Program-made: the position numbers and the translations under genes
Notes under the pieces: generated by a model
The model's input: the letters and a program-made list of their open reading frames with translations, nothing else
What the model was told of the DNA's origin: nothing
The model's database searches: none
Shown: in pieces, positions 10,266-34,620 of the stretch
How the letters are laid out: each line of letters starts with the position of its first letter
Position numbering within the stretch: the stretch's first letter is position 1
Assembly: GCA_020627925.1 (NCBI GenBank)
Contig: JAHDFY010000003.1
Span: forward strand, 1 to 64,000
Origin: a bacterium
GTDB lineage: Bacteria > Patescibacteriota > Gracilibacteria > Absconditabacterales > Absconditicoccaceae
DNA length: 64,000 nucleotides
Direction of reading: 5' to 3'

Positions 10266-11639
10266 TTATTGTTTATTGAGGGAGCTGAAAAAAGCTTCTT
10301 TTTTCTTTTGTCGTATATTACTTTGTCTTACAAGCTTGCTGCTATTTTTGGGATCTGCAAGAAGTAATTGTACTGTTTCTTCCAAAAATATCGTGTTTTG
10401 ACTTCATTTACATAAAACAAGAAACTTTTGATCGCTTTGTTGCAAAAGTTTTTTGACGGCTTCTCCTGCTTCACGAGATGAAACAAAATGCACGATATCT
10501 TTGGTCGTTCATATTTTTTGCAGTTCATCAATCGTGTGTGCAACAGCGTTACCAACAAAATAAATATAGTCTGCGACATGATCGAGAATAGGGGCAATTT
10601 GTCTATGCTCTTTTTCTTCAAAATCACCAAGTTCTCTCATTTCACCAAATACAACTACGACCTTATGATCGGGATAAACATCTTTTTGTAACCTAAAAAC
10701 ATTTTCGATAGTTTTGCGCATACTTTTGGGAGATGCGTTGTAGCTAGAGTCAATAATAAGAGAATCAGCAACTCACGCGAACAACGAGAACCTACCAGGA
10801 AGAAGTGTATACTCCAACGTGAGAGGAGTCTTTGTTTTTTTTGTAAAAAGCGACTGTTGAGTTAATTTATATACAATGGCATCACTGATACTCAAAGCAA
10901 CGGCTATATATCACAAATTTTGTTTTTCGATAAGATTAGTTTTGATTGAAATTTCCTGATCATGGAGACGAAGCGTAGCATGGTTCCATAAAATATTTTT
11001 CTCATGATGAAGATGAGTATTGCAAAAATCTAAATCATTTTTTTCAACATCATTTTCAAGTGCCGTACGATAATAGAATGCGTCGATATGCAACATGCTG
11101 TGCAATTGTCTTGCATAGGTGTCATTACTATTGAGATAGGCAATCTCTTGTGTTCACAAAATCATTTTTACTTCTTCATTTGCAATTTTTTGTGGATCCC
11201 CAAATTGAAGAGAATGAACGCTATCAAGTTTGGTAAAAACTCCATAGTGTGGCTTTGCTATCGAGAGAAGAAACTCCATTTCTTGTGGACGATCAATCCC
11301 ATATTCCAATAGAATTATATCGTATTTTTTTGTGCCAAAAAATCTTTGATACAAACAAACTATAGCTATTTTGATGAGATAATAAGGAGTAGGTGTTCGT
11401 TGCTCAACACAAAAAATACTCAAAGACATTCCCAGTTCTCCATTGAAATTTTTGGGAGAAGAGTATATTGAATAAGAAGAAGGAATAAATTGCTGAAGCG
11501 TTTGAAAAATAATAGCTCTTGCTGTGGTTTTTCCCACAGAACCGTTGATTCCAATGATGATTGGTTTGTGTCTCTTGAGGTAGCCACGAGCACATCGTGC
11601 AAGAAACTGGTAATATGTCATAAGAATTTTTTGCTTCAT
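10266..11639 (-). CDS. murF: MurF-like Mur ligase (UDP-MurNAc-tripeptide:D-Ala-D-Ala ligase)
   Basis: 457 residues. The ATP-binding P-loop GINGSVGKTT lies at residues about 29-38, LLEYGIDRPQEMEFL follows the MurF pattern LEMG-(x)-PGD, and DSSYNASPKSM (around 296) matches the ligase DxYNANP motif. Four UGA-glycines. MurF normally has an 80-residue substrate-binding domain before the P-loop; here only about 28 residues precede it, so that domain is missing or replaced. It could therefore be a divergent MurF or another Mur ligase relative. It would add a dipeptide to the peptidoglycan precursor in the cytoplasm. Confidence 0.78.
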
Positions 11640-11700
11640 CTTTTTTTTGTCTTATAAATAACTACAGTATGCAATATTGTTTAGTAATTGCAATAGTTAC

Positions 11701-12162
11701 ATGAAAATCCTCGCAAAAAACAAAAGAGCAAGGGCAGACTACGATATTGTTGATACCTATGATACAGGTATCGTTTTGCAATGACATGAAGTAAAAGCTA
11801 TAAAACTTGACCATGTCAGTATCAAAGAAGCCATCATTAGATTCAAATGACAAGAGCTTTTTGTCTTAAATATGCAAGTGCCTTTGTACAGCAAAACACA
11901 TCCCAATTTAGCTCCTGATTATCTAACTACGCAAGCAAGAAAACTTCTTCTCAACAAAAGAGAGCTTGTAAAAATTTGGACTAAAGTACACAAAACTTGA
12001 TTAACCGTAGTTCCTCTTATGATTTATGAGGCAAAAAATAGGCGTATTAAGTTGCAAATAGGCGTAGGAAAAATGATGAGAAAAGTAGAAAAAAAACAAG
12101 TTCTCAAAGAAAGAGATCAAAAAAGACAAATGAATAGAGCAATAAAAAATATGGGATTGTAA
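11701..12162 (+). CDS. smpB: SmpB, tmRNA-binding protein for trans-translation
   Basis: 153 residues, the family length. Motifs: NKRARADYDI at the N-terminus, TGIVLQGHEVKAIK (the glycine of LQGHEVK is UGA), and the basic C-terminal tail QVLKERDQKRQMNRAIK. Three UGA-glycines. SmpB delivers tmRNA to stalled ribosomes, so a tmRNA gene must exist elsewhere in the genome; I found none here. The stop codon lies in the loop of the downstream terminator hairpin. Confidence 0.95.
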
Positions 12163-12175
12163 CCCATATTTTTAT
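12144..12175. terminator. Bidirectional terminator shared by smpB and the phytoene synthase gene
   Basis: AATATGGG/CCCATATT stem with loop ATTGTAA and T runs on both strands; the smpB stop is in the loop and the opposing gene ends inside the T run. Confidence 0.8.
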
Positions 12176-13074
12176 AATGAAAAAGTTCTTAATCAACGAA
12201 CTAATAATTTGGTTTTATCTCGTTTTGTTGTTCTACAAGATCTTGCAAATACATTGTAATTATTTTTTTCGATGCGATCAAGAATTCCTTCATAAATAAT
12301 TGCAGCAAGATAAACTCCTTTGCGAGTTTTCTTAGGTAAATACTGTAATCACTCCAATGCCTGTGCGTACTGTTTTCTGTTTAGTGTTATGTACTCCTGC
12401 ATAAAATGTACAAAACGTTCATCGATACGTTTACTCTCACAGTAATAAATAATGTCATTGTGAGTCAGATCAAATCTTTTGAGATCTTGCTCAGGAAGGT
12501 AAATACGTCCTAATAGCTCATAATCTTCTCCGATATCTCTCAAAAAGTTACTCAACTGCATTGCTTCACCCAACAATGTCGCATAGGGAATTGCCTCTTT
12601 TTCAAAACCAGTAATATGACACATCATCAGTCCCACAACACTTGCAGAACCATACATATATTGTTGCAATTGCTCATAGGTCTGATAGCGGTGAGTATCG
12701 GTATCCATGAGCATCGCATCAAAAAAATCTCTACTATAGGAAAAAGGAATTTTTTTGTCGTGAAAGAGTTTGGCAGAAAGACCCCATTCTTCGTCAGAAT
12801 AGTCATTGCGGGTATAGACAGATTCTCGTTTTTTCCACATAGCACGAAGTTGCTTTCATGCAGCAAGATAGTGCTCTGATAGATTGGTCGTTGCCAGAAC
12901 AGGTCAATCTTGTACTTCACCATCAACTATTTGGTCAGGAATTCTAACAAATTTGTACAATTGCATAGTTTCTTGAGAAATATTTTTTGGAAAAAACAAG
13001 GTCGCAAGGTAGTAGCTTGTGCCATAGCGCTGCATAATGGTGGTATTGCTTTGAGAATGAAGAGGAGAAGTCAT
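12172..13074 (-). CDS. Phytoene/squalene synthase family protein
   Basis: 300 residues. Both aspartate-rich substrate motifs are present: RIPDQIVDGE (DxxxD, around residue 50) and FLRDIGEDYELLGRIYLP (DxxxD, around 172). YGSASVVGLMMC and GVYLAAIIYEGIL also match the family. Condenses two prenyl diphosphates head to head, giving phytoene from GGPP or squalene from FPP; the sequence alone does not decide which. It starts 2 bases after the stop of the polyprenyl synthase gene, a clear two-gene operon. Four UGA-glycines fit the host code, so it is not a recent import. Confidence 0.87.
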
Positions 13075-13076
13075 TG

Positions 13077-14102
13077 TTAGTTAACTCTTAGTAGCTGAAT
13101 AAGATTTTCACACTTAATTCTTGCTTCATAGGTAATATTCATTGTTTGTAATGTTTGAGAGGCCTGATCTAGGTAACCGTTGGTCGTTTGGATTCCATAG
13201 TCAAATGCTCACAATACAGTAAACAAATGGGTTAAATCTTGCTTGTCTTGATCAGAGAGGAGCGTCCCCATTTTTTCACGTAAAAACTTTTTCTGTTCTT
13301 TGGTTCCATTGTCAAAGACGTATTGTGTAAGAACAGTCTGTTGACCTTCTTGTAAGTCATTAAAGACGCTTTTGTCTTGGTGTGGTTTGTACATATCAAG
13401 CAGATCATCTCTCATTTGGTAGCCAATACCTATTTCCTTTCCTAGTTTTTTGATTTTTTCTAGTTCTTGAGGATCAGTCAATCAGGCGAGAGCGGCACCT
13501 GCAAGAAACGGCCTTACAAAGGTATAACTTGCTGTTTTGTAATAGCTTTTGGTGGTTACTGCATCAATGCTTACAGGATTTCATAGCATAAAATCAACAT
13601 CAAGCATTTGCCCCCACACTACTTCTTGTACCATCTTATGAAAGTGTCCTCTTGCTGCAGAAAGTCGCTCTGATTTGATTCATTGAGGTTGTATTTCCAT
13701 TTGTTCATATGCTCGTGAAAAACAGATATCACCCACAAGAATTGCTTGTGAAGCGGCAATATGACTATTACCAATCTTTTGTTCATAATGCTTGTGACAG
13801 GTTGGTACACTACGCCTCATATCCGCATGGTCAATCCAGTCATCATGAATAAGAGCAAAAGTATGGAATAGTTCAAAAGCTATCAAAAAAGCAGAAATAT
13901 CAGACGTGATTCACGATCCGTATCATCAAAACGTCAGTGCTACGTTATAGGGTCTTACTCTCTTTCCTTTTTGGCTAATCTCTTTGATATAAGCAATATA
14001 GAAGTTTCTTTCTTTGAGTATGGGTTGGGTACGAGCAATTTGTTGGTCAAGGTAGGTATGAAATTTCTCGTCAAAATATGCTGCATATTCATGTAAGTGC
14101 AT
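13077..14102 (-). CDS. Polyprenyl (geranylgeranyl/farnesyl) diphosphate synthase
   Basis: 341 residues. First aspartate-rich motif LIHDDWIDHADMRRS (DDxxD plus the downstream arginines), second motif QMRDDLLDMY (DDxxD), and GKRVRPYNV near the N-terminus as in trans-isoprenyl synthases. Several UGA-glycines. Adds IPP units to an allylic diphosphate. Together with the downstream synthase it would supply C40 or C30 isoprenoids for carotenoid or sterol-like membrane lipids. No IPP-making pathway is in the window, so precursors may be imported. First gene of the operon. Confidence 0.9.
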
Positions 14103-14316
14103 TCAATGGGGTAGTGAATAAATTTATTACCATACTAGTATTTAGTAATCTAATTGCAATTCCAGTAGTAATTATTGTTGTATTACGTGGCTGCTTATTG
14201 TGGGTATTGTGATTTAGTAGTTGTATCTCTTGTGTTTTTTTTATGTATTAATATAATTATGCTTATATAAAAAAATATGTCAATTGTGTGTTGTGTAACA
14301 AAAAAGTAGTCTTTTT

Positions 14317-14345
14317 TTGCAAAAGAAGAGGACTATCGGTACAAT
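14317..14345 (+). promoter_or_regulatory. Promoter of the J-domain/flotillin cluster
   Basis: -35 TTGCAA (14317-14322), 17-bp spacer, -10 TACAAT (14340-14345), 38 bases before the start at 14383. The remaining 14103-14316 region holds only AT-rich sequence. Confidence 0.5.
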
Positions 14346-14382
14346 TGGCATAGATACTTTAGTGTGTGTAGTAAGAAAAATT

Positions 14383-17300
14383 ATGGGGAAAAAATTACAA
14401 AATAGGGATAAATGAAAAGATATCTTGAACGAAATTGTAACGTCAGTTGCTAATCATTCTAAAATTTCCAAAGAAACTCAAGAGAATCTTTTTAATGTTA
14501 TGGCAATGACTGATTATAATGGTGAAAATAGGGATGAATTTTTTACTTTTATAGAAGATGCTATTCTTCAGGTCTCTATGAAGGAATGAGGTAATTCTGA
14601 AAAGGAAAGACAAAAGTGGAATGAGGTGAATGAATTACTAAAAAAATTTATTAAAGAGAAAGAAAATGAGTGGAGTGAACTTCCTAAAGACTTTTTGGAA
14701 AGGAATGAAACAAAAAAAATTGAAACAATAGCTATCCCAACTTCACCCACCCTAGTATGAACCCCTGCCTCGTATGTCCCCAATTATGGTAATGATGGAG
14801 AAATCCAAAATAACACATGAAAAAAGTCACTTCGCTATATAGTAGAAAAGGCACTTAGTGATACAGAAGTCCAATTATTAAGGGCTTTTGAAGATGATTT
14901 TACTAATGGACAAATCGTAGAAAAAGAAAATATTCAACTATACACAAAGCTAATGGCACTATTGGGTATTAAACCTGATCCTGGTACCGGTTATTTCCCT
15001 GTACTTACTGAAAATCAGTTGCAACAATTACTAACTGATGCTGATGACTTACCTGGAAGAATAAGGGAATGTTTCAAAGCTGATGTTTTCCCATTTGTAA
15101 AAAAAATGAATGGAACAATTTTTCTTCTTGAAAACTCGTCGGATAGCGCTAAGGGAGGAGAGCTAACAACAGAGGAAAAAACTGAAGAAAAGACGGAAAA
15201 TAAGCCCGTAATCCAAGATGCTGAAACACCACAAATTGAAGAAGAAAAGAAAGAAGAAAGCGACAAAACTGAAGAAGATATAGAAGAGGGTGTAGAAGAA
15301 AACACTAACAAAAAAGAGAATAGAGGATTGGTTGTACCTCCAGAAGCTCAGTTGGTTGATCCGAGCAATAACCGTCAAGAGTTACAGACAAAAAAAGAAG
15401 AAGTAGAAGAAAAAACAGAAAATGAAGTAGAGAATAATGTAGAGAACGAATTGGAAAATGAAGAAGAAGAAATTATTGCACCTCAAGCATTACAACAATG
15501 AGCTAGCAATACATCAACGGAGCTAGTACCACAAACAACGACTGATCTAGTTCCTGAAACAGCGCCAGGGCAATTAGTTGCGCCAGCAACTGCAAGAGAA
15601 CTCGTTCCAGTAGAAGAAGTAAACGAGGATATAACGCCTGAAGTAACGCCAAAAATTGCTGGGCTTTTGGATGCGCCAGTTGATACTGTTCAAAAGCAAG
15701 TAAAAATCACGCAAGATGATATACTAAGCGCTTTTGAGGCTAATTTTGTAAACACAAAAGAATTTCATCAGCAAGCTGCTAAAAAATTTGCTACAGAAGG
15801 TTACGGTCCTGACGGAAAACCTATTACTGACCCAATGGGAAGAAAATCATATAATGATAAATCTTTTTGGAATCAAGTAGGATTGATTGGACAATACTTT
15901 ATGGATGCTTCCAAAAAAAGAAAATTCATGAATGAATACATGAAAAAAGCACAAAACATATATAATCTAGATAAATCAACACAGTCAGAATTAGCAAAAA
16001 GAGCTGCCTATGCGGCAAGATTTTCTACATCTGGAATTGCTTGAGCATCAAATTATCAAAAGTTAGATACATTTCAAATTGATGAGATTAATACAATTGC
16101 TGAAGAGTTTAGACAAAATAGAAACCAAGATACGGCAGTCCGTAAGATCAACAAGTTAATGAAAACAGCAACAGGAGATCGTATCCGTCAAAAATACCTT
16201 GATGCAGGAATGAGCAAGTTGTCTTGGATATGGAGGGGAATGAGCAAAGAAGATGTACAATATCTTGCATCGAATTTGGTGGAACAAATCAAAGCACAAG
16301 CAGATACGGCAACCAAAACTATTAACTTTATAAAAAATGTAAAAAGTTCTTCGAACCTTTCACAATTGCAAACACATGTAGATAATTTTTATGTTGCAAA
16401 TGGTTCTTATCCTTCTTTTATTTTCAAATTTTGTGCTAATCCAAAAAATATACAAGAAAGTGAATTTTCACTTATCAAGTCTAATGCTGTATTGCAAGGA
16501 ATGAACGACGATAATATGAAAATGAGATTAAAAATTAATGCCTACTATCAAAAAGAAGGTGCACAAATTGGTTCGGCAGAATTAGATAAATCTCATCAAA
16601 ATGTATGGTACAGATTAGGAAAAAAATTGGATGACATGCCTTGGGGAGCAAGAATAGCGACAAGAGGATGAATCACTATAGGAGCTACAACACTTGCGGC
16701 AATGTCGAGCGCACCTCTTGCAGTAGCGGGAGCAGGAGCATGAGTTGCTATGTTTTTGCAAGCACTCAAAACTAATTACGAATCAAAAGAAGAATGATTA
16801 GAAAATGTAAGAATGCACTTAGAAGACCGTGATAAACTCAATAGAATCAAAGAAGATTTAGAAAAAAAACTCAAGGCAACAACCTGGTTTGGAAGAAACA
16901 TGTGGTTTGGAAAAGCAGATAGATGGTCAAAACAACTAAGACTGATCAATGGAGTCGTGAATCTGTCGACAGACGCAGACGGGGATCCTTATGTTTTCCC
17001 TATTGAAAAAAGACTTGCAGATCTTAGTGCGCCTACAACAGACGCTAATCAATGAACTCAAAGAGCTCTTATCATAGATACATTGGCTCGTATGGATGTT
17101 GCAGGAGAAACCAACAGAAGTGCGTTCTCTGCGCAGAATGGACATAAAGTAGCAAAAAATGAAGCTCTCTTGTCAGTATTACAAGAAAAAGCGCTTACCT
17201 TGTTTCCGCCAACATGACCATTGCCTTCTGATCAACAATCATGGGTAAATTATTGGGACAAGCATGTAAGAGGGCAAGACGAATATAAAGATAGTACCAA

Positions 17301-28875: not shown

Positions 28876-30564
28876 TTATCTTCTTCTGTAATTGTTTCTT
28901 GAACGTCATCCACTTCTACCTCTTCCACCGTTATTTCCTCATCTGTATCAATCTCTTCCTCATCTTCCACCACCTCATTTTCTTTCTTTGGCTTTGGTTA
29001 CTAGTGGCTTTTCACCTCTTTTGAGATTCTTTTTACTTCCTAGTTTGTGAAGAATTGCTTCAGCTTCTTCAAATGGAGCTGTCACAAAAGAGAAATCATC
29101 AAGAATAGTAACATTTTGTAGTGAACGTGGCGGTACATCACATGTCTTTGCAATGTGGTTTACTAGTTTTCTTGCATCATATCCGCTTGATCTACCAAGT
29201 GCAACAAAAAGTCTTGAAACACCTGCTTTGTCCACGTTTACTTCCGAAATATCTTTGTACTTATGTTCAGAAAGATCGTGTTCGTATGCAAGTAAAAGAA
29301 GTGCTGAAACAAGTTCTTTTGCATCATGATCAGCAAGCATTTCATCAGCAAACTCATGAAATTGTTTGATATTGTTTCCATCACATACTGCATTGATTTG
29401 TGCTCTTAGTCTTCTCTTTTTTCCTTTGATTATTTCGTGTACTTCAGGAATTGGTCCTTTTTCAATACTTGCCTTAGTTACTCTTTTGAACAAAAGTAAT
29501 CTTTTGTATTCATCTGGAGTAATGAATGTGATTGCTGTCCCTGTGTTTCCTGCTCTTCCTGTTCTTCCTACTCTATGTACATATGATTCTGGGTCTTGTG
29601 GAAGAGAGTAGTTGATAACGTGAGTAATATTATTCACGTCAATACCTCTTGCTGCTACGTCAGTAGCGACCAATACAGTTAGCTTTTTTTCTTTGAATCT
29701 TTTGAGAATCCTTTCTCTTTGGCGTTGTTCTACGTCACCATGAAGGTAATCTGCAAAGTATCCTCTTTTTTTAAGGTTTCCTGCGACTTCTTCTACATTT
29801 ACTTTTGTTCTACAAAAGATAATTCCAAAAAAGTCTTCTTCTACATCAATAATTCTACTAAGTGCTTCAAATTTGTCTCTGTAATTTACTTCAAAATAGA
29901 TTTGTTCTACCGTTGAGGCTGTCATATCTTTCTTTTTTACCGATACAACCTCAAATTCACCCATATATTTTTTTGCAACCCTCAAAATTTCTTTTGGCAT
30001 AGTTGCAGAGAAAAAGAGCATGCTTGTATCATCATTTGCAGCAGCAAGAATTTCTTTGATATCATCAATGAAACCCATGTTAAGCATTTCATCCGCTTCG
30101 TCGAGGACAAAGTACGAAATGTTGTCAAGGATGATTCTTCCTTTGTTTATATGATCAATTACCCTACCAGGAGTTCCGACAATAATATCTGCTCCTTGTT
30201 TGAGTGCTCTATTTTGGATGGTATATGATTGTCATCCATAGATAGTAACTACGTTAATTTTTTTGTTTGCGATGAATGAACGTATTTCTTCTGCAACTTG
30301 TATCGCAAGCTCTCTGGTTGGAGCCAGAATGATTGCTTGTGTGTCTTTTGAGTGTTCGGTTATTTTTTCGGCAAGAGGGATTCAGAATGCGGCAGTCTTA
30401 CCACTTCCTGTCGCTGCTTGTCATATGATATTGGTGTCTCCAGCAAGTAGAAGAGGAATAGTCTTTTCTTGTATCGGTGATGGCACTTCGAATCATTTTT
30501 TTTCTAATGCTTTGAGAGTAGCATCACTGATTCCTAGCGCCTTAAATTTTTCTAATTTAGTCAT
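28876..30564 (-). CDS. DEAD-box ATP-dependent RNA helicase with RGG tail
   Basis: 562 residues. Q motif FEVPSPIQEKTI, motif I AATGSGKTAA, motif Ia APTRELA, motif II VLDEADEM, motif III FFSATMP, motif V TDVAARGIDV, motif VI YVHRVGRTGRAG. After the core come a DbpA/CsdA-like RNA-binding domain (about 460-525) and a C-terminal Gly/Arg tail (GGGRGGRDGYRGGNNGGRGR), whose glycines are partly UGA. Likely remodels rRNA or structured mRNA, as the cold-shock helicase CsdA/DeaD does. The promoter is followed by a terminator-like leader hairpin just before the start codon. Confidence 0.93.
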
Positions 30565-30647: not shown

Positions 30648-30815
30648 GGTCTTTTACAAAGAATACATACTCAGAAGTTTTTCCGTTATAGAAAGTTTTT
30701 ATGTATTAGTTATGTGTTTGTATTTGAGAATCAATATTATATTATTGCTTTGTAGGTTATTTGTCCTATGATTTATTAAAATAAAACATTAAATTAAAAA
30801 ACAGTTTGTAATTTT

Positions 30816-33737
30816 ATGAAAACAAAAAAAATCTTACTTTCGTTTTTCTGTCTTGTTGTGTGTCTAGCAAATCTGATGGGACAATATTCCTACAGGACAG
30901 ATTTGTCAATTATTACTCCTGATACTATTGGGGATGGCGCTTACCATGGTATCGGTCTTATGCCACAAGTGGTTGCATTCTCTCATGTAGAAGGTGATTC
31001 TCTTGTCTTCTCTGTTGCAAATAGAGACGATATCTCAAACACAATTGTGACAGGTTATAAACCATTTACTAATGGCATTTGCGCTGAGTTACTCAACTCA
31101 AGTGGAGTTGTGATTAGTGAACGAGTATGTATTGCATCGGGCGATGCTCATGCTACATTAAAGATGCATAAAAGCAATGTCTCTGATTCGATGCAAATAC
31201 AACTGAATGCATATGATTCTTTGTATGCATTTTGGTTTGTAGATCCTACCATGACACTTTATGCTGAATCTTCTGTAGAGAAGCTTATGACGCCCACTCC
31301 TGCTGCATACTTGAATGGAACGACCTTGAATGTTGAAGGAAACTTTGATATTCGCTCTAACTCTATTCAATTGGCCATATTGCAAGAGCCAAGCAGCCCA
31401 GTTCCTCTTCATGTGTGGAATGGAGTAACGGGGTTTCGAAAACCAAACCTTTTGGTGACGGTTGATGATTCTCTGGATCTCAATCGAATTACTTACACGG
31501 ATGAAGATTGGGTAAGTGTTCGTTCTTTGAGTAATAGCGGTCTTGTTCAGTCAAATTGGTCTTATCCTGTTCGACTGAGCCGATTACCTAGCTATCCGCT
31601 CAAGCAAGCAATTATTGCAACCAATACAGTCAAGGAAGATTCTTTCTCAATTTCTATAGAAATTGATGGCAGAATTACACCTACGACAGGAAATATTCGT
31701 ATTGTTGTTGCCCCCGATGATGGGACAGCGATTACTTTGACTGATTCTGTTGCTCCTTTTGTGACACAATCAGAGGTATTTAATCGGCTGATACCAGTAA
31801 ACACTCTTGTCGATGATTCGACAGGACTGTATCATATTGGTCCATTAGATACTGCGACCAACTATGTTGTGACGGCAACCTATGGAGATCCTTATGTTCT
31901 CAATGGCGCTCATCCAATGTTTTGTAACTCTCACGCAGTTGCAACAACAGGTACGGCTCTACATCAAATGTTAGAACCTGAACAGTGTGACGTAGTGGTG
32001 ACGGATACGGTATGGTTTCGCTTTGAGGGTAATCAATATCCGACGATCACCTTGCAAATAGATAGCATGGATACGGTAGGAAATTGGGTATCGCTCTCCA
32101 ATCAAACTTATGTACCAACAAGTAGCGAATGGAAACAAGTCGATGGAGATATCTACATTGCAATATTACTCCCTGCAGCAAATACTTATCGATGCAGTGT
32201 TGATGGGGGAGTTAGCTATACGGTATTTTCTTACCAATCTGTTAACTCTAATAGTTCGTGCCAATCATTTGTGATTCGACACGATATAGCAAGCAAATCG
32301 CTCGCTTACCAACATGAAACAGTGATATTTTATGCACAAGTACTAGGAGACAGTAGCGGAATACAGAACATGAAACTTGAAATAAACAACAATTCTCAAA
32401 CGTATGCGCCACAAGAATATCAAGCACTTTCTCTTGGTGGTGGAGCATTTATGGGATTTGCCATTCTTGGTGATACAGGAATATACCAAGCAAGGTTTTT
32501 TGATTCAACGACAAACATATCATCACAATCACAAATGGTGGTGATAGTAGAAGACCCTTGTATTGGTGGACAACAACCAATTGATTTTGCAACACCAATC
32601 GCGCATATAGGGACTTGTTTTGCCAATGCAACAGGATGGGTACAACACCCTTCTAATGACCAAATGGTGGGGATTGATTCACTTGCTCAGTCGTGGATTT
32701 TTACAGGAATGGAATGTGATTCAACAATAATTGCGCCATGTGATCTTCGTGTGATCCAAGTCAGACAAGGATGTCCTACGCGTTGCGATACTTCAGGTAT
32801 TGATCTTCATTGCAACGAGTTCGGTAATTACATTCTTGCTCAGTCTGTTGAATCTGGATGGTTTGTTCGTATTTCTCATCTCAACACTATTTTGGTAGCA
32901 GAGGGAGACAAAATTCGAAGAGGACAATCATTAGCACTTGCTGGTTTTACCGGTGAATCTGACGGAACCATGATATCATTGTATCAAATGCCTAATGATT
33001 TATGGGATCCTTCTATGCAAGACAGTGCATCTTACAGTAAAAATTTTGTTATGGATGCTACATGTCCAAGTGTTACGACAAAGTTAGCTATGCAAGATGC
33101 CTTGTTGGCAAATGTTCAGAATGGTTATTTACATGCGGTAGCATCATTTACCAATACGAATACTCAGTTGTTTGAAGGAACTGTACAATTGGTTATGTAT
33201 CGAGACAACCAGGTGGTAAAAAGTGCAAATACATCACCAACGATTATCTCTTCTACGTATCAACAAATTGCTCCAGGTGGTATCGTCGATATGGAAGAGG
33301 AGTTGTCTAATGTTTCGTTGCTCAGCAATCATACGGTAGCATTGCGCTACAAATCATGGAATCAAGATCACTGGAACTTAGTTGTTCCAAGACAGATACA
33401 CAATGGAGTGGAAGATATTCAATTGCATAACCCATTTCGTATTGACCTCTCTTCATCACTCGTTCTGCACACCCCAAAAGGAACAGAGAAAGGAACGGAG
33501 TTGACACCAATGACGCATGTGTATCCAAATCCAACCAATGGCGTTCTGTTTATTGATCTTGCTCATAATACCAACATACTTGCTACGGCCCTCTATGATA
33601 TTCATGGGCGACAAGTAGTGAGGCAGAATAATTCATTACAAAAAATACATCTGAACGAGCTTCCTGTAGGGGTGTATGTACTTCGTTTGGAGCTTGATAA
33701 TGGATGTTTTAGCATCCACAAAGTAGTAAAACAATAA
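30816..33737 (+). CDS. Large secreted protein with type IX secretion C-terminal domain and degenerate M23-like domain
   Basis: 973 residues. Signal peptide (MKTKKILLSFFCLVVCLANL). Repeated beta-sandwich modules fill about 30-560. A cysteine-rich segment (about 590-680) leads into an M23/LytM-like fold (GNYILAQSVESGWFVRISHL, KIRRGQSLALAG) that lacks the usual HxH zinc ligands. The last 80 residues match a type IX secretion (Por) sorting domain: VYPNPTNGVLFIDL, LYDIHGRQVVR, LPVGVYVLRLE, ending VVKQ. By my count it has about 60 glycines, none encoded by UGA, and mostly CGN arginine codons where neighbours prefer AGA. It looks imported from a Bacteroidota-like genome. No type IX machinery is in the window. 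Confidence 0.85.
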   Translation: MKTKKILLSFFCLVVCLANLMGQYSYRTDLSIITPDTIGDGAYHGIGLMPQVVAFSHVEGDSLVFSVANRDDISNTIVTGYKPFTNGICAELLNSSGVVISERVCIASGDAHATLKMHKSNVSDSMQIQLNAYDSLYAFWFVDPTMTLYAESSVEKLMTPTPAAYLNGTTLNVEGNFDIRSNSIQLAILQEPSSPVPLHVWNGVTGFRKPNLLVTVDDSLDLNRITYTDEDWVSVRSLSNSGLVQSNWSYPVRLSRLPSYPLKQAIIATNTVKEDSFSISIEIDGRITPTTGNIRIVVAPDDGTAITLTDSVAPFVTQSEVFNRLIPVNTLVDDSTGLYHIGPLDTATNYVVTATYGDPYVLNGAHPMFCNSHAVATTGTALHQMLEPEQCDVVVTDTVWFRFEGNQYPTITLQIDSMDTVGNWVSLSNQTYVPTSSEWKQVDGDIYIAILLPAANTYRCSVDGGVSYTVFSYQSVNSNSSCQSFVIRHDIASKSLAYQHETVIFYAQVLGDSSGIQNMKLEINNNSQTYAPQEYQALSLGGGAFMGFAILGDTGIYQARFFDSTTNISSQSQMVVIVEDPCIGGQQPIDFATPIAHIGTCFANATGWVQHPSNDQMVGIDSLAQSWIFTGMECDSTIIAPCDLRVIQVRQGCPTRCDTSGIDLHCNEFGNYILAQSVESGWFVRISHLNTILVAEGDKIRRGQSLALAGFTGESDGTMISLYQMPNDLWDPSMQDSASYSKNFVMDATCPSVTTKLAMQDALLANVQNGYLHAVASFTNTNTQLFEGTVQLVMYRDNQVVKSANTSPTIISSTYQQIAPGGIVDMEEELSNVSLLSNHTVALRYKSWNQDHWNLVVPRQIHNGVEDIQLHNPFRIDLSSSLVLHTPKGTEKGTELTPMTHVYPNPTNGVLFIDLAHNTNILATALYDIHGRQVVRQNNSLQKIHLNELPVGVYVLRLELDNGCFSIHKVVKQ

Positions 33738-33792: not shown

Positions 33793-33829
33793 AGCCAACT
33801 TTTCTTATGAGGAAGAGTTGGTTTTTTTT
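33793..33829 (+). terminator. Terminator after the type IX-tailed gene
   Basis: CCAACT...AGTTGG hairpin followed by TTTTTTTT; an earlier CTTGGTT/AACCAAG stem (around 33748-33780) precedes it. Confidence 0.75.
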
Positions 33830-34469
33830 ATAAAGACAATACAAATCAATCAAAATTGTGCGATTCTTTTGTTTGATGATGTATACCATAAAGATCAATA
33901 GCAACATGCGTCACATCAAAAGAATAGGGAAGAAAACGTTCTATTTCTTGCTGAAGTATACTTGCTCATGTTTTATTCTCACCTTCTCCCAATGTTACAT
34001 GAGGCTCAAAACATTCCATCACTCTTGTATATCCATATTTATTGATCATGTTTACTTCAATCGGAGTGAGTAGATTATTAGCTATTCTCTTTTTATCCTT
34101 TTCTCTTTGTAAATTTTCTCTGATTGGATTGACAATGCTAATGATATCATGGTGTAACTGTACTAGTGAGTTGCTTTTTTCAGCTAATAAAGAAAAAAAA
34201 TAGTTATCTTTGTGAGCGTTGTGGCTTGCTTGTACTGATGCAAGTGTCACAGTTGTATGGGAAAATGACTGAAGAGGAAGGACTGCAGAGAGTTTTTTGT
34301 GTTTTTGCTGATCAAATCTACACAAGTAAAGCGTGATATGAGGAGTAAGCTCATGATAGTTTTGGTGATCAGCACTCTTCGTTTTTGCATGGTGTATAAT
34401 CTGACACATTTGCTCTGGGAGTGGTATGCTGATACCAACAAAAAGTTCGTAGTCACTTATTCTTTTCAT
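33828..34469 (-). CDS. 2H phosphoesterase (2'-5' RNA ligase-like)
   Basis: 213 residues. The two hallmark HxT motifs are TPHITLYLCRF (around residue 43) and FEPHVTLGEG (around 156), about 110 residues apart as in the family. Two UGA-glycines. Members hydrolyse or form 2',5'-phosphodiester or 2',3'-cyclic phosphate bonds in RNA. Its exact substrate is not visible. Convergent with the preceding gene, ending inside that gene's terminator. Confidence 0.82.
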
Positions 34470-34567
34470 GAAAATATAGTAAATGACAAAAAATAATATT
34501 ATTCACATATGGTAGTTATTGTTTGTATCAATACTAGCAAAAGTCAAAATGAAAGTAAGCAATGTAT

Positions 34568-34595
34568 TTGCATTTTTGTAACGAGAAAGTACAGT
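34568..34595 (+). promoter_or_regulatory. Promoter of the GyrI-like gene
   Basis: -35 TTGCAT (34568-34573), 16-bp spacer, -10 TACAGT (34590-34595). Confidence 0.4.
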
Positions 34596-34620
34596 GTACA
34601 TAACAATTTATTTCATCATA

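What the first reader, a model, noticed from the sequence alone, without database searches (positions are those of the whole stretch)
30816..33737. A 973-residue type IX secretion protein with no UGA-glycine inside a UGA=Gly genome
Seen: about 60 glycines by my count, all GGN, while RecA uses UGA for about a fifth of its glycines and the neighbouring adhesins far more. Arginine is mostly CGN against AGA in nearby genes. Known: the C-terminal YPNP...VGVYVLRL domain directs export by the Bacteroidota type IX system, which CPR bacteria, lacking an outer membrane, should not have. Inference: recent acquisition from a Bacteroidota host or prey, or an assembly join. If expressed, it reads correctly in both codes, so it is one of few genes that could work in either partner.
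Basis: partly seen in the sequence, partly recalled or inferred. Interest (0 to 1): 0.85.

Follow-up and report, generated by a model that had tools for sequence, protein, structure and literature searches.

The report
Symbiont genes written in host's code
A tiny symbiotic bacterium that reads UGA as glycine carries a set of surface-protein genes that never use that codon and bear the export tags of another bacterial phylum, as if they were kept to be read by its host's ribosomes rather than its own.

Summary
In detail: 30816-33737 encodes 973 aa with a type IX sorting tail, 62 glycines and no UGA, among genes using UGA for about 27% of glycines. It is not an isolated recent import or an assembly join. 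The genome has five such genes on three contigs; 31 of 49 genomes of its SR1 (Absconditabacteria) family have at least one. Of 72 such genes read in code 25, 60 have no internal UGA (0 in 35,027 codons; background 32% of glycines). Some are old: near rpsL, orthologues across two genera form one clade nested in Bacteroidota, with dS 1.5-2.9 and dN/dS 0.13-0.17 in the pairs tested. Most shared glycine codons have changed, never to UGA; flanking genes do show UGA. In genus g15 even EF-Tu uses 18-24 UGAs. The genes carry Bacteroidota signal-peptide and leader features; four end in UGA. The type IX channel and motor families tested are absent. Many promoters look sigma70-like, not Bacteroidota-like. 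Best reading: genes kept readable for a standard-code (Bacteroidota) host's ribosomes, which would make and export the proteins; transfer as mRNA is inference. The focal gene's body is an orphan, so its own age is unproven.

The parts
30816..33737 (+). UGA-free gene for a 973-aa type IX-type secreted protein
   Evidence: Open in both codes; 62 Gly, 0 UGA
30816..30881 (+). Signal peptide (residues 1-22), followed by Gln23, the Bacteroidota Q-rule pattern
   Evidence: Read from the sequence MKTKKILLSFFCLVVCLANLMG/Q; class statistics. Cleavage site is inferred
32781..32972 (+). M23-peptidase-like stretch (residues 656-719), weak; the C-terminal HxH-type motif is not evident
   Evidence: Pfam E 1.4e-5, below cut-off; weak PDB matches to M23 enzymes
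33519..33725 (+). Type IX (Por) sorting tail, residues 902-970
   Evidence: PF18962 E 5.7e-11, 43 bits against cut-off 27;
30766..30815 (+). A-rich leader before the start codon (A at -6 and -13); no clear TTGAC box upstream
   Evidence: Sequence printed
33795..33829 (+). Terminator-like hairpin CCAAC...GTTGG followed by eight T
   Evidence: Sequence printed
28876..30564 (-). Left neighbour, DEAD-box helicase-like gene, code 25 (9 UGA of 46 Gly)
   Evidence: family named from the sequence, not tested
33828..34601 (-). Right neighbour, code 25 (3 UGA of 8 Gly)

Best explanation
The gene belongs to a class of host-coded genes resident in SR1 (Absconditabacteria) chromosomes. Shown for the class, with inheritance shown for its syntenic families: the genes come from Bacteroidota stock, some have been inherited for long evolutionary times, encode proteins under purifying selection, carry Bacteroidota-type translation leaders, signal peptides and type IX sorting tails, and exclude UGA although their genomes use it for a fifth to over a half of glycines. 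Inferred: they are kept readable because standard-code ribosomes of a Bacteroidota host translate them, and the host's own Sec and type IX machinery then puts the symbiont-specified adhesins and enzymes on the host surface. Because many of these genes have sigma70-like rather than Bacteroidota-like promoters and are closed by strong terminators, the most economical version is that the symbiont transcribes them and the mRNA (less likely the DNA) reaches the host during cell contact. The channel is unknown; the symbiont's VirB4-type IV system is a candidate. The outcome would resemble a symbiont supplying its own receptor or coat on the host. For the window gene this rests on class membership: its body is an orphan.
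For: 60 of 72 sorting-tail genes have no internal UGA against 32% background; 0 in-frame TGA in 35,027 codons while 1338 and 721 occur in the other frames. Syntenic orthologues: g15 pair 58 shared Gly sites, 37 with changed codon, 0 UGA; flanks 100 sites, 83 with UGA. dS 1.3-2.9, dN/dS 0.13-0.18 in six of seven pairs. One SR1 clade of nine (99/96) nested in Bacteroidota, genera grouped. Four genes have their first UGA just past the sorting tail, as a standard-code stop would be. High expression does not explain it: EF-Tu has 18 and 24 UGA in g15, 13 in g21. Leaders A-rich (score 0.66 against 0.38 native secreted, p 4e-10) and Gln after the signal peptide in 31/45 against 30/137 native and 53/89 Bacteroidota. 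Type IX channel and motor families absent in six SR1 genomes, present in three Bacteroidota controls. sigma70-like boxes in 21/54 against 51/384 native; Bacteroidota -7 motif not enriched. UGA-containing sorting-tail genes mostly lack the leader and signal peptide.
Against: No host, no expression and no transfer data. The channel is unknown. The genes are also readable in code 25, so making the proteins in the symbiont is not excluded. UGA stop use (4/60) is somewhat below that of Bacteroidota (38/242, p 0.09), so termination in the symbiont may matter too. The window gene is an orphan and its own age is unproven. Loci were picked by sorting-tail hits and starts called by a simple script. Orthologues are not independent.
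Confidence: 0.55

Rival explanations
1. Recent horizontal transfer: each gene came lately from Bacteroidota and has not had time to gain UGA; the sorting tail is a relic.
For: Bacteroidota relatedness; sequences of two further SR1 genomes sit elsewhere in the tree, so there was more than one acquisition; the window gene is an orphan with raised GC and CGN arginine.
Against: Syntenic orthologues near saturation at synonymous sites, one SR1 clade, purifying selection, four-fold GC tracking the resident genome (rho 0.57); best Bacteroidota relatives of the rpsL family only 30-36% identical. Does not explain the sigma70-like promoters.
Confidence: 0.15
2. Renewal by recombination: the genes are old in SR1 but are repeatedly overwritten by homologous DNA taken up from the host, which keeps UGA out without any reading by host ribosomes.
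For: Would give synteny, Bacteroidota signals and no UGA together; genetic exchange between Patescibacteria and Bacteroidota is reported (PMC12455944).
Against: SR1 sequences form their own clade and no close Bacteroidota copy was found in the genome collection; four-fold composition follows the resident genome; promoters look like the symbiont's.
Confidence: 0.12
3. Expression in the symbiont with a code-independent reason to avoid UGA, such as very high or stress-time expression; the proteins are secreted by Sec and dock on the host surface through the sorting tail.
For: In G000 EF-Tu and an S-layer-like gene also lack UGA; near-consensus sigma70-like promoters and strong terminators suggest good transcription.
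Against: In g15 and g21 EF-Tu is full of UGA while these genes have none; the window gene does not use the codons of highly expressed genes (AGA 0.17 against 0.92); leaders unlike native highly expressed genes; UGA stops in four genes.
Confidence: 0.13
4. Assembly or binning artefact.
For: The assembly's estimated contamination is 3.36%; some hits in relatives lie on very short contigs.
Against: Genes embedded singly among code-25 genes on long contigs, including a one-contig genome (G026), with conserved synteny across genomes. No reads were available to map.
Confidence: 0.02

Closest known systems
Bacteroidota type IX secretion cargo with type A sorting tail (PF18962)
   Same: Signal peptide with Gln after it, repeat or enzyme body, C-terminal sorting tail; SprB, PKD, peptidase C10 and MopE domains in class members
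   Different: Encoded in an SR1 genome in which the two type IX families tested are absent
Code-11-compatible phages of SR1/Gracilibacteria (PMC10746230)
   Same: Few or no in-frame UGA, readable in both codes; proposed to work in code-25 and standard-code hosts
   Different: Phage genomes; the resident prophages reported there use code 25, whereas these are resident chromosomal genes in syntenic places
Agrobacterium T-DNA (from general knowledge)
   Same: Genes kept in one organism but carrying signals for use in another
   Different: DNA delivery to plants with host-type promoters; here promoters look like the symbiont's and both partners would be bacteria
Tir of enteropathogenic E. coli (from general knowledge)
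   Same: The proposed outcome: a symbiont-specified protein displayed on the host surface
   Different: Tir is delivered as protein; here host translation is proposed, and display is not shown

Membership tests
T9SS cargo | C-terminal type IX sorting domain | tested here: met
   PF18962 43 bits against cut-off 27
T9SS cargo | N-terminal Sec signal peptide | tested here: inconclusive
   Typical sequence by eye in the window gene; only a simple pattern test for the class
T9SS cargo | Type IX machinery in the same cell | tested here: not met
   SprA_N and GldM_1st absent in G000 and five relatives, present in three Bacteroidota controls. So it is not cargo of its own cell; it would work like cargo in a host
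T9SS cargo | Export and tail cleavage shown | not testable with these tools
   Needs an experiment
Recently transferred gene | Close donor relative | tested here: not met
   None for the window protein; 30-36% at best for the rpsL family
Recently transferred gene | Foreign synonymous composition | tested here: inconclusive
   Four-fold GC like the neighbours, but Arg codons and total GC differ
Code-bilingual phage gene | Location on a mobile element or virus | tested here: inconclusive
   No viral contig matched the window protein; relatives sit in conserved chromosomal contexts. Nine viral contigs hold relatives of the rpsL-family alignment, not followed up
Highly expressed native gene | Codons of highly expressed genes (AGA, no GGC or GGG) | tested here: not met
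   AGA 0.17 against 0.92; GGC 0.10, GGG 0.13 against 0.00, 0.02

The most novel reading that the evidence does not exclude
An episymbiotic bacterium with a deviant genetic code keeps a private set of chromosomal genes in its host's code, transcribes them itself, and has the host's ribosomes and type IX system make and display the proteins: delivery of messenger RNA (or genes) between bacteria, with the code difference exposing which genes are meant for the other cell.
Probability: 0.4. Interest if true: 0.97.

Novelty: categorically new. Interest (0 to 1): 0.9.

Why it matters
If right, code 25 acts as a natural dye: a gene in SR1 (and perhaps Gracilibacteria) genomes that stays UGA-free for long is a candidate for action in the host, which could reveal host identity and host-directed proteins of uncultivated bacteria from sequence alone. 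It would also be, to my knowledge, the first case of bacterial genes evolved to be translated by a different bacterium, and it makes a testable claim about nucleic-acid transfer between episymbiont and host. Even the weaker result, long-term exclusion of UGA from a defined gene class inside a UGA=Gly genome, was not met in my literature searches (no paper in that library holds both 'Absconditabacteria' and 'type IX secretion').

Tried and rejected
Recent transfer: rejected for the syntenic families by synonymous turnover, clade and composition; open for the window gene. High-expression codon bias: a real confound in G000 (EF-Tu, S-layer-like gene), rejected by the EF-Tu control in g15/g21 and by Arg codons. 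Assembly join or contamination: rejected by long contigs and synteny. Bacteroidota promoter (TTTG/TAnnTTTG): looked for, not found; this weakens a DNA-transfer version. A shared 3' tag on the mRNAs: only terminator hairpins found. Structure prediction of the window protein: useless, pLDDT 31 without an alignment, so no fold search was run. Scan of public genomes for close relatives of the window protein: none. First SprA search uninformative because its controls were silent; repeated with type IX-bearing controls. Lipoprotein surface-export signal C-X-K-(D/E)2 (PMC5080379): one UGA-free lipoprotein fits (L213, GCQKDE) and one partly (L037, SCKKD), 0 of 21 native; too few to lean on (the script's lipobox pattern did not list the L213 gene).

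Full report
1. The observation. The ORF at 30816-33737 is real: 973 aa, open in the standard code and in code 25, 62 glycines, none UGA. Its neighbours use UGA for 27% of glycines; at the sampled genome rate the chance of none is 1e-8. It ends in a type IX sorting domain, starts with a signal peptide followed by Gln, and is closed by a terminator-like hairpin. Its body matches no Pfam family above cut-off, shows only a weak M23-like stretch, and has no relative in 49 family genomes or in a pattern scan of a collection of about 85,000 species; only the tail is shared.

2. Not alone. The genome holds five sorting-tail places on three contigs. A family-wide search finds them in 31 of 49 genomes. 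With my own profile run on code-25 translations of 79 loci, 72 sorting-tail genes were found, 56 with no UGA at all. Four more have their first UGA just past the sorting tail, where a standard-code stop would be: 60 of 72 lack internal UGA. The other 12 contain UGA, and most of them have low-A leaders or no Bacteroidota-type signal peptide, so sorting-tail domains as such can take up UGA.

3. Age. Many of these genes are syntenic orthologues. Seven genomes of genus g13, three of g15, and one each of g3 and g21 carry one near rpsL, in some as the last of three UGA-free secreted-protein genes; in two g15 genomes it lies 7-8 kb from rpsL, in the opposite orientation. At shared glycine sites most codons have changed but none to UGA, while flanking genes of the same genome pairs show UGA at 83 of 100 such sites (g15) or 79 of 229 (g13). 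dS is 1.1-2.9; dN/dS is 0.13-0.18 for six of seven pairs and 0.57 for one. In a tree with 28 Bacteroidota sequences, nine SR1 sequences of g13 and g15 form one clade (99/96), each genus together, nested among Bacteroidota; two further SR1 sequences sit elsewhere, so there was more than one acquisition. GC at four-fold sites follows the resident genome (rho 0.57). This is what old, resident genes look like, except that UGA does not enter: 0 of 35,027 codons, with TGA common in the other two frames.

4. Not high expression. Sampling 0.54 Mb of G000 showed that EF-Tu, an S-layer-like protein and a few others are also UGA-free or UGA-poor, a serious confound. The EF-Tu control settles it for other genera: 18 and 24 UGA in the g15 EF-Tu genes and 13 in g21, while the sorting-tail genes there have none in 36-69 glycines. 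In G000 itself highly expressed genes use AGA for 92% of arginines, the window gene for 17%.

5. Whose signals? Upstream of the start codon these genes are A-rich, with peaks at -14 and -6, where Flavobacterium leaders are enriched or tuned (PMC6847099); native SR1 genes are U-rich around -20 to -15. Gln follows the signal peptide in 69%, against 22% of native secreted-like proteins and 60% of Bacteroidota ones; this Q-rule is described as specific to Bacteroidetes (PMC5837995). The same leader marks other UGA-free genes, mostly for secreted proteins and lipoproteins, while UGA-free housekeeping genes mostly lack it. Cargo includes SprB repeats, peptidase C10 with its inhibitor, MopE repeats and PKD domains. 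The type IX channel (SprA_N) and motor (GldM_1st) families are absent in six SR1 genomes and present in three Bacteroidota controls. Promoters differ: TTGACT, and TTGAC with a TATA-type -10 at sigma70-like spacing, are enriched over native genes and shuffles; the Bacteroidota motif is not. Start codons and operon heads were called by a simple script, so single leaders may be misplaced; the window gene itself has no clear TTGAC box.

6. Interpretation. Shown: a gene class, old in its syntenic families and under purifying selection there, that excludes UGA and carries Bacteroidota translation and sorting signals inside code-25 chromosomes. Inferred: selection for reading by standard-code ribosomes, that is, in a Bacteroidota host. 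More tentative: mRNA as the thing transferred, because promoters look like the symbiont's own; a VirB4-type ATPase family found in 10 of 10 SR1 genomes tested belongs to the kind of system that PMC12102498 describes as homologous to monoderm conjugation and mostly lacking a relaxase. Entirely open: host identity, channel, and what the proteins do. For the window gene alone, recent transfer cannot be excluded.

7. Literature. Code-11-compatible phages of these bacteria are known, and their resident prophages are reported to use code 25 (PMC10746230), which fits the view that resident genes normally take up UGA. No paper found in the searched library joins Absconditabacteria with type IX secretion. 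The library is open-access only, so this is not proof of novelty.

Limits: loci were chosen by sorting-tail hits; orthologues are not independent; no reads, expression data or host genomes were available; structure prediction of the window protein failed.

Noticed in passing
L036 (G000:C6:57000-76900) 10771-16323 +: 1850-aa UGA-free secreted protein (164 Gly, CGN 46 / AGR 5) with a weak RHS-repeat match and an A-rich leader, just downstream of a sorting-tail gene; no sorting tail called.
   Followed up: partly
L213 8182-11700 + and L035 3900-5000 - (G000): Native, highly biased surface-protein-like genes sharing a YxQTQLDAFTxVYD segment: 84 Gly with 0 UGA and AGA-rich arginine; probably the S-layer or another abundant protein.
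   Followed up: no
G000: In some SR1 genera highly expressed genes avoid UGA (EF-Tu 0 in G000, G026, G006), in others not (18-24 in g15): UGA use in abundant genes seems to differ between genera of one family.
   Followed up: partly
G068 (L089, L103), G034 (L091), G060 (L086 11493-12122): Sorting-tail-like domains rich in UGA and without an evident signal peptide: either domesticated or unrelated look-alikes.
   Followed up: partly
G041 (another SR1-class family), L116 1640-2545 +: Sorting-tail gene with 2 UGA, both upstream of an internal Met that starts a Bacteroidota-type signal peptide; the true start may leave it UGA-free, so the class may reach other families.
   Followed up: no
L204 17854-19593 + (G000:C3:81854-83593): Pair of UGA-free A-leader genes, a lipoprotein and a secreted protein without Pfam matches, on the window's contig outside the window.
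   Followed up: no
L076 16827-18575 + (G060): UGA-free gene (33 Gly) with a fairly A-rich leader and a MutS domain V match, cytoplasmic by look: an exception to the secreted-only pattern worth checking.
   Followed up: no
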